Shown here piece after piece: positions 14,609 to 18,323 of a stretch of 64,000 bases of DNA (the first letter of the stretch is position 1; every line of letters starts with the position of its first letter). A model generated the notes under the pieces. It did no database searches and had not been told where the DNA came from. It saw only the letters and a list, made by a program, of their open reading frames with translations. Location of the stretch: NCBI GenBank assembly GCA_016288205.1, contig JAEEYO010000025.1, forward strand, positions 1 to 64,000, read 5' to 3'. A program made the translations under genes and the position numbers. Source of the DNA: Treponema sp. (lineage in GTDB: Bacteria > Spirochaetota > Spirochaetia > Treponematales > Treponemataceae).

Positions 14609-16015
14609 ATGGAATACAAGAGGAGTGCCGCAGATGATTTTCGTGAGTGGGCCGACAGATTTTTAAATTTTGAAAAGACACCGGAGAAGAATATCTTTTG
14701 GCTTGACACGATGAATTTTCTTTGCGAAAGGCTGGGGCATCCTGAAAGAAAATGCCGATCATTCCATGTGGCTGGCTCCAAGGGCAAGGGTTCCATTTCC
14801 ATTATGATTGCGAAAATCCTTGAGGAGGCCGGATTCAAGACCGGAGTTTACAGTTCCCCGCACATCTCCGATTTCCGCGAGAGAGTCGCTACGTCACGAG
14901 GATTTTTTGATGACGACATTTATTCAAGGGCATCGGAAAACGTGATTCGGACCGTGCAGGATTCTTTGGATGATTTACCAGCGAAAAGACCCGTCACTTG
15001 GTTTGAGCTTGTCACATTGTTCGCCATGGAATGTTTCAAAACCGCAGGATGTGACTGGTCGGTCTATGAGGTGGGACTTGGCGGACGGCTGGACTCCACA
15101 AATGTTATTTTGCCAGAATGTTCTTGCATCAGTACGATTGAGCTTGAGCACACAGAGTTTCTTGGCGATACTTTAGAAAAGATTGCTTTTGAAAAGGGCG
15201 GGATAATAAAAACCGGGGTTCCAGTGGTTGTCGCTCCACAGTCAGCGGATTCCGTAAAAGATGTGTTTAGGAAAATCGCTCTTGAAAAGGGAGCTGAGTT
15301 GATTTTTGCCGATGAAGCCGTGAAAGTTTCTGAGCTTGTGTACAAAAACAGAATGAGCTCAGTCTACAAAACAAAACTTGATGACAAAGATTCTAGCTCC
15401 GGGATGGAAATCTGCCTTGAGTCTGATTATTTTTCACGCCCAATAAGAACAAAACTTCGGATGCCTGGTGACTTTCAGGCTTGGAATGCGGCTCTTGCAT
15501 CTCTTGCGGTTAAGAAGGTTTATCCCGAGCTGGATGAAAAAATCATTGAGGCGGGGCTTTCCAAGGCATCTCTTCCGGGCAGGTTTGAGGTGATTGAATC
15601 CCCGAAAGAATTTCCGGGACTTCCGTTTGTGGTTTTGGACGGTGCTCATACGGAAAGGAGCGTAAAATTCACGCTTTCGACGTTCTCAAAACTTTTTGGT
15701 GATAAAATACCGGCTCATTTACTTTTTGCATGTGCCGCAGACAAAGATGCAGTGCATATCGCAAGATGTTTTTCAGGTCGATTCAGCCGCATAACGCTAA
15801 CCAAACCGGGAAATACAAAGGCTTCTAATCTCCCGGGACTTGCAGACGCATTTGATAGCGCCGGAGAGAAATTCACAATGAACGAAAACTATGCAGAGGC
15901 TATTGAGGACGCTTTTTCATCCGCCGCACGCGAGGGAGTTCCGCTTCTCATAACAGGCTCCTTCTATCTTCTTGCCGAGGTAAAAGATTTGCTTTCACGA
16001 AAAAACGTGGTATGA
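14609..16015 (+). CDS. folC: Folylpolyglutamate synthase / dihydrofolate synthase
   Basis: ATP-dependent ligase adding glutamate to dihydropteroate or folates, Mur-ligase family. The P-loop GSKGKGS is at 56-62, followed by SSPHISDFRERV, and VVLDGAHTERS marks the ligase C-terminal domain. Length 468 is slightly over the usual 430. GGAGG lies nine bases upstream, and the gene begins two bases after the DUF4340-like stop, although the functions seem unrelated. Whether it has both synthase activities is not decidable here. Confidence 0.93.
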   Translation: MEYKRSAADDFREWADRFLNFEKTPEKNIFWLDTMNFLCERLGHPERKCRSFHVAGSKGKGSISIMIAKILEEAGFKTGVYSSPHISDFRERVATSRGFFDDDIYSRASENVIRTVQDSLDDLPAKRPVTWFELVTLFAMECFKTAGCDWSVYEVGLGGRLDSTNVILPECSCISTIELEHTEFLGDTLEKIAFEKGGIIKTGVPVVVAPQSADSVKDVFRKIALEKGAELIFADEAVKVSELVYKNRMSSVYKTKLDDKDSSSGMEICLESDYFSRPIRTKLRMPGDFQAWNAALASLAVKKVYPELDEKIIEAGLSKASLPGRFEVIESPKEFPGLPFVVLDGAHTERSVKFTLSTFSKLFGDKIPAHLLFACAADKDAVHIARCFSGRFSRITLTKPGNTKASNLPGLADAFDSAGEKFTMNENYAEAIEDAFSSAAREGVPLLITGSFYLLAEVKDLLSRKNVV

Positions 16016-16060
16016 TTTTGCGGAAAACGATTCAGCAATCTGCTTTGCACGCTCGTCGCA
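16013..16060 (-). pseudogene. Remnant of the 3' end of an Rpn-family gene
   Basis: On the minus strand this stretch reads DERAKQIAESFSAK, closely like the intact Rpn protein's end (ERVKQIAQSLSVKA) at 16213-16251; at DNA level about 27 of 34 aligned bases agree. No more of the gene is recognisable upstream. It abuts or slightly overlaps the folC stop. It looks like the tail of a second, deleted copy, with the intact gene standing about 200 bases away in the same orientation. Confidence 0.6.
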
Positions 16061-16139
16061 AGCTAAGCTTGCTCTTCAAGTTTTTGTTTGGTCGCAAAGC
16101 TCCCATTTTCCACTTTGTGGAAAAACACAAAAACTTGCG
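16058..16139. repeat. Cluster of inverted repeats between Rpn remnant and intact Rpn gene
   Basis: A 15-base palindrome GCAAGCTAAGCTTGC lies at 16058-16072. CAAGTTTTTGT (about 16077-16087) is matched by ACAAAAACTTG (about 16126-16136), and GGTCGCAA (about 16089) by TTGCGACC. Between them TTTTCCACTTTGTGGAAAA is a further hairpin. The whole is not explained by the flanking genes; a terminator or a small mobile repeat are both possible. Confidence 0.6.
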
Positions 16140-16209
16140 ACCAGAGCCAATTTTAATCCATTTTATCTCAACGGATCTCTCCTCGTTATTCCATGCCCAC
16201 CATGAATCT

Positions 16210-17046
16210 TTATGCTTTTACGGAAAGAGACTGAGCAATCTGTTTCACACGCTCCAAGGGGAGTCCGATGCATCTTGCGACCTTTTCTGGTGAGTCGCCT
16301 TCCCGAAGGAAGTTCTCCGCATCCTCCAGGGCTTTTTCTTCCACGCCACGCTCTTTTCCCTCCTCAAACGAGATGTCCTTTTCCTCATCTATTGTCTGCT
16401 GCCAGGTCATATATTGTTTCCTCCATTCCATGTTTTTCCGGGCGAAGAATACTTTTTCTTCTATGGATTTCGTGAAATCGCTGTCGGCATTCTGGTTCAC
16501 TAGAAACTTGAAAAAGGCTTTCTCCTCGTCATTTTCCATTTTATCATATTTGGACGAGTTGAAAAAGAGCTTGTAGGCTCCGTCGTTTAATTTTATTTCT
16601 TTTCCATCTTTCAGGCACTTGTTCTCGAAGGAATATAGCGGAAGGTTCTCGTTGAACGGGTCGTCCAAACACAGAAAGATTACATAAGAATCCTTGAGCC
16701 TACTGTAATTCTCACCACGAGAAAGGTTGTCCATGTCAATTATGCTTTGGTAATACCGCGCCCTTTTAGGTAGATTTGCTTTTAGCGTTGTCTGGATCTC
16801 CAAGTCAAAGATTCTGTTTTCATCCTTGGTGTAGACGTCGAACCTCACGCTTTTGGCATCGGGGGCTTCCTGCAGCGTATGTTCAGAATGTGGCATTTCA
16901 AGTTTCTCAATCTTGATGTGTAACAAGATTTCCAGCAGGCGACGACAGATCTCAGGCTCGCTTTCCATGATTTTGCAGAACATGAAGTTGTTCGCAAATG
17001 TAAGCTCTTCCCATGCGGGGGACTTTTTGACTTCTTTTCTTGTCAT
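16210..17046 (-). CDS. Rpn family recombination-promoting nuclease / PD-(D/E)XK putative transposase
   Basis: A 278-residue protein of the Rpn/PDDEXK_2 kind. The nuclease core is visible: RFDVYTKDENRIFDLEIQTT, giving Asp70 and the D-x-E-x-Q triad at 81-85, then RARYYQSIID and a hydrophobic strand (YVIFLCLDD). The C-terminal part is charged and helical with ERGVEEKALEDAENFL and ends in a short helical motif (VKQIAQSL). Rpn proteins of E. coli are DNA endonucleases that stimulate RecA-independent recombination. Such genes are often multicopy in Treponema-like genomes. GAGGAAAA stands upstream of the ATG. Confidence 0.9.
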   Translation of the reverse strand: MTRKEVKKSPAWEELTFANNFMFCKIMESEPEICRRLLEILLHIKIEKLEMPHSEHTLQEAPDAKSVRFDVYTKDENRIFDLEIQTTLKANLPKRARYYQSIIDMDNLSRGENYSRLKDSYVIFLCLDDPFNENLPLYSFENKCLKDGKEIKLNDGAYKLFFNSSKYDKMENDEEKAFFKFLVNQNADSDFTKSIEEKVFFARKNMEWRKQYMTWQQTIDEEKDISFEEGKERGVEEKALEDAENFLREGDSPEKVARCIGLPLERVKQIAQSLSVKA

Positions 17047-17162: not shown

Positions 17163-18323
17163 TCACTGTCCAACAAATACCCGGGGAACCCTTCTGGTGA
17201 GGACTGTGGTGATTTCGTAGGAGATTGTGCCGGTAAGTGATGCGAGTTCGTCGGCTGTCATGGCGGCACCGTCTTCTTTTGAGCCGAAAAGCACAACGCG
17301 GTCCCATCTTTTTACGTCGGAGTCATTGCCCAGATCCACCATGCACTGATCCATGCAGATTCTGCCCCGCACCGGATATGCTTTTCCGTTTACGCCGACT
17401 TTGATTCCTGCGGCCGCAAATCTTCTGACAAATCCGTCGCCGTAACCTACCGGGAGAACCGCAATGTCGGTGTCGCTCTGTGCAATCCATGTCCTTCCGT
17501 ATCCCACGCTCATACCGGCTTTGAAATGTCTTATGGCGGAGACTTCGGTTTCGAGCGTCATCACCGGGCGAAGGTCTATCGGAGTACCTTTTTCGCTCAG
17601 GTATTTTTCGCTCACTTCATCCGCATAATAACCGTAGACGATGATTCCGGGCCGCACCATGTCAAGGTGTGTTTCGGGCAAGTCAAGGGTGGCGGCAGAG
17701 TTTGCGGCGTGGCAGATTCCGGGATTCAGACCTCTCTTCCTGATTGACTCGATGGCATTCTGGAGACGGGAGAACTGGAGTTTTGTGTATTCCACGGAGT
17801 CGCTTTTCTTTGAGTCGCTGAGGGCAAAGTGAGTCATGGTTCCTTCCTGCACGAGGGAGCCTGACTTTGCAATGCATTCAGCCATGTCCGCGGCTTCTTC
17901 CGGCATGCAACCGATTCTTCCCATCCCTGTATCCACGGCAAGATGGACTTTAAAAACTGATTTTCCCTGCTTTTTTGCCTCATCCGCAAACAGATTGATG
18001 TATTCCTTGTCGAAAACAAAGGGCGTGATGTCGTGCTTTACGGCCTCAGGGATTTCCTCAGGGGTACATAGGCTGAAAAGGAGGATCGGGGCGGTGATTC
18101 CGTGTTGCCTGAGCTCAAGTCCTTCGTCAACGCATGCCACGGCAAGGTATTCGACTCCACATTCCAAGGCTGCTTTTGCACATTCCACGCTTCCATGCCC
18201 ATAAGCGTCAGCCTTTACCGGTATGCACATCTTTGTTCCCGGCTTCGTGAATGCCCTGATTGCCTTGATATTGTGCTTGAAATTTTCCAAATGAATTATA
18301 GCTCTGGTTGCCCTCATTTTCAT
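17163..18323 (-). CDS. alr: Alanine racemase
   Basis: PLP enzyme producing D-alanine for peptidoglycan. The PLP lysine is Lys37 in PVKADAYGHG; the second catalytic residue, Tyr, is in SVGYGRTW in the C-terminal beta domain; RGRICMDQCMVD is a further signature. The 386-residue length is normal. Starts at 18323 or 18317 are equally plausible. It is divergent from the decarboxylase gene across 183 bases in which I see no confident promoter. Confidence 0.96.
   Translation of the reverse strand: MKMRATRAIIHLENFKHNIKAIRAFTKPGTKMCIPVKADAYGHGSVECAKAALECGVEYLAVACVDEGLELRQHGITAPILLFSLCTPEEIPEAVKHDITPFVFDKEYINLFADEAKKQGKSVFKVHLAVDTGMGRIGCMPEEAADMAECIAKSGSLVQEGTMTHFALSDSKKSDSVEYTKLQFSRLQNAIESIRKRGLNPGICHAANSAATLDLPETHLDMVRPGIIVYGYYADEVSEKYLSEKGTPIDLRPVMTLETEVSAIRHFKAGMSVGYGRTWIAQSDTDIAVLPVGYGDGFVRRFAAAGIKVGVNGKAYPVRGRICMDQCMVDLGNDSDVKRWDRVVLFGSKEDGAAMTADELASLTGTISYEITTVLTRRVPRVFVGQ

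What the first reader, a model, noticed from the sequence alone, without database searches (positions are those of the whole stretch)
16013..17046. Remnant tail of a second Rpn gene beside an intact copy, with palindromes between
The end of the intact gene is repeated in the same direction about 200 bases away (DERAKQIAESFSAK versus ERVKQIAQSLSVKA). Between lie a 15-base perfect palindrome and nested inverted repeats. This looks like a scar of duplication followed by deletion, in keeping with Rpn-stimulated recombination.
Basis: seen in the sequence. Interest (0 to 1): 0.55.

Follow-up and report, generated by a model that had tools for sequence, protein, structure and literature searches.

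The report
Leftover spare tail beside Rpn gene
The scar next to this Treponema nuclease-toxin gene is the last piece of a spare gene ending of a kind that recurs beside related genes, sometimes in a version that differs from the ending now in use, which suggests that these genes can trade their antitoxin-bearing tails.

Summary
The end of the intact rpn gene (16210-17046, minus strand) recurs 200 bases downstream in frame (33 of 42 identical; 0 of 500 shuffles reach this), behind an 88-base palindromic element, E. The scar is the end point of a wider pattern. At C71 in the same genome, rpn and E are followed by a full "orphan tail" that starts at the ribosome-binding site of the presumed internal antitoxin (RpnS) and shares a 99% identical arm with its neighbour, but has an unrelated C-terminal module (44%). 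Tails are exchanged: the C44 gene is 87-90% identical to three siblings in the N-part, yet its module matches a distant Rpn (82%) and the C71 orphan (83%). Tail type changes at least 22 times on the N-domain tree of 76 genes. The E. coli rpnE locus shows two states: tail alpha plus orphan beta, or gene fused to beta. Downstream RpnS copies and fusions were reported in E. coli before (PMC10327210); the mismatched orphans, the tail exchange and the palindrome were not in what I read. Adjacent orphans are a minority state. Rpn-driven recombination was not tested, and the window's own remnant is dead.

The parts
16210..17046 (-). intact rpn gene (RpnL, 278 aa)
   Evidence: ORF; TIGR01784 and PF12784 above cutoffs
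16408..16424 (-). inferred internal start of the RpnS antitoxin: GGAGGAA (16418-16424) and ATG (16408-16410)
   Evidence: sequence; strong Shine-Dalgarno at this Met in 44 of 64 genes against 21 of 389 other internal ATGs; function inferred from PMC10327210
16213..16320 (-). C-terminal module of the intact gene (AENFL...SVKA)
16143..16209 (-). 3' untranslated stretch, similar to that of the C71 and C60 genes and the second C47 orphan
   Evidence: read by eye
16055..16142 (-). palindromic element E
   Evidence: window and C71 copies are each 99% identical to the same query, and further copies lie at rpn loci; fold z -3.65 with flanks
16106..16124 (.). inner palindrome of E (8-bp arms, 3-base loop)
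   Evidence: read; folded
16058..16072 (.).
   Evidence: read
16010..16054 (-). remnant: last 14 codons or so of an orphan tail, no start, stop lost, overlaps the folC stop
14609..16015 (+). folC-like gene, left neighbour (gene name recalled, not from a call)
   Evidence: ORF; beside alr in relatives
17163..18323 (-). alr-like gene, right neighbour (gene name recalled, not from a call)
   Evidence: ORF; relatives in 24 of 25 genomes searched, the own genome included

Best explanation
The window holds the decayed end of an orphan Rpn tail cassette. In its intact form such a cassette is a short ORF downstream of an rpn gene. In C71, C47 and E. coli it begins at the ribosome-binding site and ATG of the internal antitoxin RpnS; in L231, L233 and L237 the repeated stretch begins some 30 codons further upstream and includes that start. 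It repeats the gene's own sequence through the repeat helix (the 5' arm), and then in several cases carries a different C-terminal module and a different number of four-residue repeats. Homologous recombination in the shared arm would swap the tail of the toxin gene, and its built-in antitoxin, for the orphan's, and would delete what lies between; the reverse event (a new tail coming in upstream) would leave the old tail as an orphan. In the window a deletion has removed all but the last 14 or so codons of the orphan, up to the end of element E, so this copy can no longer serve. E is a palindromic repeat found with many of these tails. Shown: the anatomy, the mosaic genes, the mismatched orphans, the two states in E. 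coli. Inferred: the recombination route, antitoxin function in Treponema, any benefit of switching, and any role of E.
For: Intact counterpart: C71 rpn-E-orphan, arm 116/117 identical, module 40/90. Arm conserved but module replaced also in L231 (76/81 vs 48/96), L237 (103/105 vs 47/96), E. coli MG1655 (105/108 vs 37/60) and Ec-23 (147/153 vs 39/63). The replaced module exists elsewhere: the C71 orphan module is 83% identical to the C44 gene's; the L237 orphan module is 90% identical to that of another rpn gene on the same contig. C44 gene: N-part 87-90% to three siblings, module 48-54%, but module 82% to C29, whose N-part is 49% (codon-shuffle background 44 +/- 8, maximum 82 among 60). At least 22 changes of tail type on the N-domain tree of 76 genes with 6 types, against 27.6 (25-29) for 200 shuffles of the labels. 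Repeat region differs between gene and orphan in 7 of 8 pairs compared, by multiples of 4 aa. E. coli: 7 of 7 two-tail strains have alpha in the gene and beta in the orphan, 5 of 5 one-tail strains have beta in the gene; the alpha-orphan junction is in 3101 of 5426 genomes, the beta end in 5363.
Against: Adjacent orphans are a minority: among loci not chosen for having one, 3 of 56 relatives' genes with room downstream (plus one marginal hit) and 0 of 11 genome-collection loci, some of which are the same contigs. In L233, L172, L184 and C63 gene and orphan have the same module type. In L177 and L178 the orphan shares no clear arm with its neighbour, and in L179 only some 45 nt, so arm recombination could hardly use them. 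No switching was watched, and its direction is unknown. E. coli RpnE is annotated inactive. In the window the remnant has no arm and no start. One codon-shuffled module reached 82% identity, so identities of that size over 90 nt are not by themselves proof; the case rests on their coincidence with the N-part contrast. The tail types were cut by a threshold of my own and the tree is a quick one.
Confidence: 0.52

Rival explanations
1. Neutral duplication and decay. Tandem copies of the rpn 3' end arise by slippage or unequal crossover and rot away; the differing modules reflect fast divergence, and the orphans do nothing.
For: The window copy is plainly dead. Same-type orphans exist in L233, L172, L184 and C63. 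Adjacent orphans are uncommon.
Against: The arm stays near identical while the module drops to background in C71, L231 and L237, and the foreign module of C71 and L237 is found on other rpn genes. Differences between gene and orphan in five pairs are mostly synonymous. The beta end is present in 5363 of 5426 E. coli genomes.
Confidence: 0.22
2. Extra antitoxin. The orphan RpnS is kept because it neutralises RpnL (of the neighbour, of another locus or of an incoming element) and not as a spare tail.
For: Orphans at C71, C47, L177, L179 and E. coli rpnE have a ribosome-binding site and ATG. E. coli RpnE_S encoded downstream of rpnE is made (PMC10327210, passage read). Orphans of another type lie behind rpn genes in L177, L178 and L179.
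Against: The repeat region differs in length from the neighbour's in 7 of 8 pairs, and one added repeat abolished blocking in E. coli RpnC (PMC10327210, passage read), so most of these are predicted not to block the neighbour.
Confidence: 0.18
3. Element E drives the pattern. E is a small mobile palindrome that inserts at rpn loci; deletions that start at its end remove neighbouring DNA and leave tails abutting it.
For: E's end (CTTGCGAC) abuts rpn tail sequence at five different points: C71 and C47, C44, G005 C7, G060 C10 and the window. E also occurs away from rpn, and inside an rpn gene in G005.
Against: Mismatched orphans occur without E (L231, L237, E. coli). I saw no target duplication and no empty site for E at an rpn locus, but made no systematic search for them.
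Confidence: 0.07
4. Chance similarity in a repeat-rich intergenic stretch.
For: The repeat is short, 42-44 nt.
Against: 0 of 500 shuffles reach it, it is in codon register, and related tails lie at the same place in sibling loci.
Confidence: 0.01

Closest known systems
RpnL/RpnS toxin-antitoxin genes of E. coli, with separate downstream rpnS genes (Zhong et al. 2023 preprint, PMC10327210; parts 1-3 of 4 of the text and search passages read)
   Same: Nuclease gene with internal RpnS start and four-residue repeats; a second RpnS gene downstream; fusion of N-domain and rpnS is mentioned as one way an rpnS gene is lost.
   Different: There the downstream copies are said to cluster with their own upstream gene. 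Here some orphans carry another module type or come from another Rpn type, tails are exchanged among N-domains, and in this genome a palindromic repeat separates gene and orphan.
Orphan rhs-CT modules of Salmonella (PMC3967940; abstract and passages read)
   Same: Main gene followed by displaced C-terminal pieces with a shared stretch (95% over 522 bp there); recombination fuses main gene and orphan and changes the C-terminus.
   Different: Rhs is a delivered toxin with a separate immunity gene; here the swapped part is itself the presumed antitoxin and is very short. Experimental evidence for the fusion exists for Rhs, not here.
Small palindromic and MITE-like bacterial repeats (REP, Rickettsia palindromic elements; recalled; only a search listing seen)
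   Same: E is a short dispersed palindromic repeat, sometimes inside genes.
   Different: E is concentrated at rpn tails in this genome; no transposase or target duplication was identified.

Membership tests
Rpn family (TIGR01784 / PF12784) | profile match above curated cutoff | tested here: met
Rpn family (TIGR01784 / PF12784) | PD-(D/E)XK-type active-site residues (D..ExQ; motif recalled) | tested here: met
   75 of 82 non-redundant genes match a pattern of my own for it, the window's gene among them; own C29 and C63 are among the 7 misses
RpnL/RpnS toxin-antitoxin | internal start with ribosome-binding site for the C-terminal domain | tested here: met
   window 16408-16424; 64 of 82 genes have the Met, 44 of these 64 a strong site, against 21 of 389 control ATGs; caveat: the W-R codons TGG-AGG also make this motif
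RpnL/RpnS toxin-antitoxin | four-residue repeats of variable number in the tail | tested here: met
   gene and orphan arms differ by multiples of 4 aa in 7 of 8 pairs, 0 in the eighth
RpnL/RpnS toxin-antitoxin | tail homologous to RpnA_S (PDB 7TH0) | tested here: inconclusive
   profile of 8 Treponema tails: 7TH0 at E 0.015, second of 41; the first is 8vd6 'CAP REPEAT' at 2.2e-12, which I did not look into
RpnL/RpnS toxin-antitoxin | toxicity of RpnL and neutralisation by RpnS | not testable with these tools
   needs the bench
Orphan C-terminal cassette (Rhs-like) | downstream piece shares an arm with the main gene, then diverges to another module | tested here: met
   C71, L231, L237 and E. 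coli rpnE. Not met in L233, L172, L184 and C63 (same type) nor in L177, L178, L179 (no or little shared arm)
Orphan C-terminal cassette (Rhs-like) | main-orphan recombination in a population | tested here: inconclusive
   both states exist among 12 E. coli strains read; direction and event not observed
Orphan C-terminal cassette (Rhs-like) | window copy has an arm and a start | tested here: not met
   only about 14 codons remain; the window copy is a relic, not a working cassette
REP/MITE-like element (for E) | dispersed palindromic copies beyond one gene family | tested here: met
   17 of 98 same-genus genomes, own included; 2 of 12 own hits away from rpn
REP/MITE-like element (for E) | target-site duplication or mobilising transposase | not tested
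   none noticed in the loci read; no systematic search

The most novel reading that the evidence does not exclude
rpn loci run an orphan-cassette switch: spare RpnS tails of other specificity, kept downstream and here framed by palindromes, are swapped into the toxin gene by recombination in the shared arm. Toxin and antitoxin specificity then change in one step, and the same arrangement recurs from spirochaetes to E. coli.
Probability: 0.35. Interest if true: 0.72.

Novelty: new variant of a known kind. Interest (0 to 1): 0.5.

Why it matters
The paper that described RpnL and RpnS stresses that the two must change together and says that the mechanism of repeat change warrants further study (PMC10327210, discussion read). 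A spare tail with a shared arm gives a concrete, testable route for changing the whole tail: one crossover changes toxin and antitoxin at once. It would also explain why tail type follows the N-domain so poorly, and it makes the E. coli rpnE loci (a match in 5371 of 5426 genomes) a ready data set.

Tried and rejected
Rfam: no match in 15900-16400 up to E 1. PADLOC: no family. PDB by sequence with the whole protein: no Rpn among the 16 matches; top hit 8vd6 'CAP REPEAT' at 0.015. E as an attC-like integron site was considered and dropped: by eye it lacks the core-site sequences I recall; no test was run. E as an Rpn-specific mobile element (REP/RAYT-like) was dropped because E occurs in genomes without an Rpn match. 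E as a terminator: the scan gave none within E. The 28 loci from genome contigs showed no downstream orphan with the window's own tail as query, nor did the 11 with room under the profile. One fold (L031) was run on wrong coordinates and is not used.

Counts that need their limits told. Arm changes: one of five pairs (L172) was read in the wrong frame; one search repeats the count, but there I also began the L233 pair one codon later, which leaves out one amino-acid-changing difference (11 instead of 10 if kept); the L184 pair covers the whole tail, and the C71 pair was not in the count. Selection: L172, L177, L178, L179 and L184 were fetched because one search had already shown a tail or E beside the gene, so they are left out of the rate given (3 of 56). 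The 60 loci were picked by hand from the listed rows for room on both sides; that list was cut off by the tool. L226 (score 12.0) and L236 (truncated parent gene) are not counted. The 12 E. coli strains beside MG1655 were picked by hand from 40 listed rows. The eight pairs are those with a shared arm; C63, L177, L178 and L179 are not among them.
Full report
What is in the window. On the minus strand, 16210-17046 is an intact rpn gene of 278 codons (TIGR01784 and PF12784 above cutoff). It lies between a folC-like and an alr-like gene (names recalled). After its stop come 67 bases of 3' sequence, an 88-base palindromic element that I call E (16055-16142), and then 14 codons that repeat the end of the gene (16010-16051), running over the folC stop codon. 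The repeat is not chance: 33 of 42 bases match, in codon register, against a maximum of 29 in 500 shuffles.

The site. Of 14 same-genus loci that a search with the alr protein brought in, 11 also hold folC in the stretch; in 7 of these the two genes are convergent with at most about 135 bases between them (L248, L251, L253, L256, L259, L260, L261). In L249 the gap is about 700 bases and was not examined, in L250 (G009) it holds an unrelated ORF, and in L254 and L255 the two genes lie on one strand. So the rpn block in the window is most simply an insertion between neighbours.

The intact form of the scar. A search of the window's own genome with this protein gave 32 matches, many of them tails only. 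At C71 a sibling gene has a similar 3' sequence and an E that, like the window's, is 99% identical to the query, followed by a full short ORF that begins GAGGAACAATATATGACC, that is at the ribosome-binding site and ATG of the tail. At C47 there are two such ORFs in a row, with E before, between and after. At C60 E is cut down. At C44 an orphan tail of another Rpn type follows a more distant E copy, and after it stands a last piece of an older tail (RVKQIAESLSVKV), beginning at the same codon as the window's. The window is therefore an end product: rpn, E, and an orphan reduced to its last codons, next to the end of E.

What the tails are. In E. coli the C-terminal domain of Rpn is also made separately from an internal start and blocks the nuclease (PMC10327210, parts 1-3 of 4 read). 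In the genes collected here, 64 of 82 have a methionine at that place just after the nuclease part, and 44 of these 64 have a strong ribosome-binding site before it, against 21 of 389 other internal ATGs; the protein's W-R codons help to make this motif, so part of the excess may be protein constraint. A profile of eight tails finds the solved RpnA tail 7TH0, though only at E 0.015 and behind an unexamined repeat protein, 8vd6, at 2.2e-12.

Tails are swapped between genes. In the own genome, the C44 gene is 87-90% identical to the window, C71 and C60 genes in its N-part, but its C-terminal module is 48-54% identical to theirs, near the codon-shuffled background (44 +/- 8, maximum 82 among 60). 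The same module is 82% identical to that of C29, whose N-part is only 49% identical, and 83% identical to the C71 orphan. Over 76 genes whose module type is shared with at least one other, types change at least 22 times on a quickly built N-domain tree; six types could do with five changes, and 200 shuffles of the labels give 25-29. Tail type thus follows the N-domain only a little better than chance. The types were cut by a similarity threshold of my own.

Orphans that differ from their neighbour. In C71, L231 and L237 the arm is 94-99% identical and the module 44-50%. For L237 the foreign module sits, 90% identical, on another rpn gene of the same contig. In L233, L172 and L184 the module is of the same type, and so it is in C63. 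In L177 and L178 the orphan is of another type and shares no clear arm; in L179 it is of another type and shares some 45 nt. The repeat region differs by multiples of four residues in 7 of 8 pairs with a shared arm. Since one added repeat abolished blocking in E. coli RpnC (PMC10327210), most of these orphans are predicted not to block their neighbour. Differences between gene and orphan in five pairs are mainly synonymous (34 against 10, or 11 with the codon that I left out of L233; pN/pS 0.07). That speaks for purifying selection on at least one of the two copies; part of the divergence may be older than the orphan state.

How common it is. Counting only loci not chosen for a tail, 3 of 56 rpn genes from relatives with at least 700 bases downstream have a clear tail match that starts within 200 bases (L231, L233, L237), one more has a marginal hit, and 0 of 11 from the genome collection do (some of these are the same contigs); in the own genome 2 of 11 do. 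Upstream on the same strand within 700 bases there were three hits: the C44 orphan, and two longer ORFs of 168 and 260 residues (L233, L244), among 79 genes with that much room upstream. Reversed ORFs gave none at the threshold. Adjacent orphans are a recurring but minority state; contig breaks in tails may hide more.

A second species as a test. At rpnE of E. coli the orphan (ypaA) starts exactly at a repeated ribosome-binding site AAAAGGAGAGATTAATG. I fetched MG1655 and 12 strains picked from 40 listed; one is broken at an IS2. In 7 of 7 two-tail strains the gene ends in type alpha (...TQLTDADIPN..) and the orphan in type beta (...TQLSEADLAANNH); in 5 of 5 one-tail strains the gene ends in beta. 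The alpha-orphan junction is present in 3101 of 5426 genomes and the beta end in 5363. So one species holds both the displaced and the fused state. The fusion as such was already noted by Zhong et al.; that paper does not use the words orphan or swap in its main text. The direction of change is not shown here. K-12 RpnE is annotated inactive and was inactive in the assays of PMC5350276 (passages).

Element E. E is a family of its own: 12 hits at E<=1e-3 in the own genome, 10 at rpn genes or tails and 2 inside larger hairpin elements; hits in 17 of 98 same-genus genomes, the own one included. Of the 16 others, 14 have an Rpn match at E<=1e-3 and 2 do not. In one relative two copies lie inside an rpn gene (G005 C99). 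Its end abuts rpn tail sequence at five different points. In L179 an E-like element, and in L177 its last hairpin only, is followed by AGGAGG and an orphan start. It may be a passenger, a help to translation, or a spot where deletions start; the data do not decide. Orphans also occur without it (L231, L237, L172, E. coli), so it is not needed for the pattern.

Verdict. The more interesting point is what was duplicated: a spare antitoxin tail, in several loci of another type. I take tail exchange by recombination in the shared arm as the likeliest account (0.52), with neutral decay and extra-antitoxin readings as serious rivals. In print: among the 25 papers listed of 515, one is on RpnS and RpnL, and none of the titles and abstract starts listed (25 of 1,497; 10 of 14; 8 of 3,493; 12 of 31) describes mismatched orphan tails. 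These lists are capped and cover open-licence papers only; the published version and the supplement of Zhong et al. were not read, so I do not claim that the point is unpublished.

Noticed in passing
own genome outside the window: C50:70589-70904, C66:139889-140214, C48:23835-24090, C66:3424-3675, C32:75117-75351, C10:49753-49984 and others: A family of long hairpin elements with similar outer arms (TATAAGGCAAGTGC ... GCACTTGCCTTATA) whose middle part differs between copies; in two copies the middle holds an E-like module.
   Followed up: partly
L181 (G005 C99): Two E elements lie inside one rpn gene, one of them replacing the stretch just before the RpnS start.
   Followed up: partly
L167 (G005 C59), 680-1029: Five E-like matches in tandem between two ORFs; no Rpn match in the 1.8 kb read.
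   Followed up: no
L180 (G051 C100): Two tails of another Rpn type in tandem after a third whose upstream part I did not read, separated by a different hairpin (ATCCGTCAATTT ... AAATTGACGGAT).
   Followed up: partly
L098, L101, L102, L107 and own contigs C43, C23, C52, C3: Contigs end inside or near rpn genes or tails, as expected if these stretches are repeated; orphan counts in draft genomes may therefore be too low.
   Followed up: no
folC-alr intergenic region, L250 (G009): The intergenic site that holds the rpn block in the window holds an unrelated ORF in a relative, so it may be a favoured insertion site.
   Followed up: no
window rpn tail (alignment A1): The profile of Rpn tails matches PDB 8vd6, named only 'CAP REPEAT', at 2.2e-12 in five stretches; what that protein is was not looked into.
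   Followed up: no
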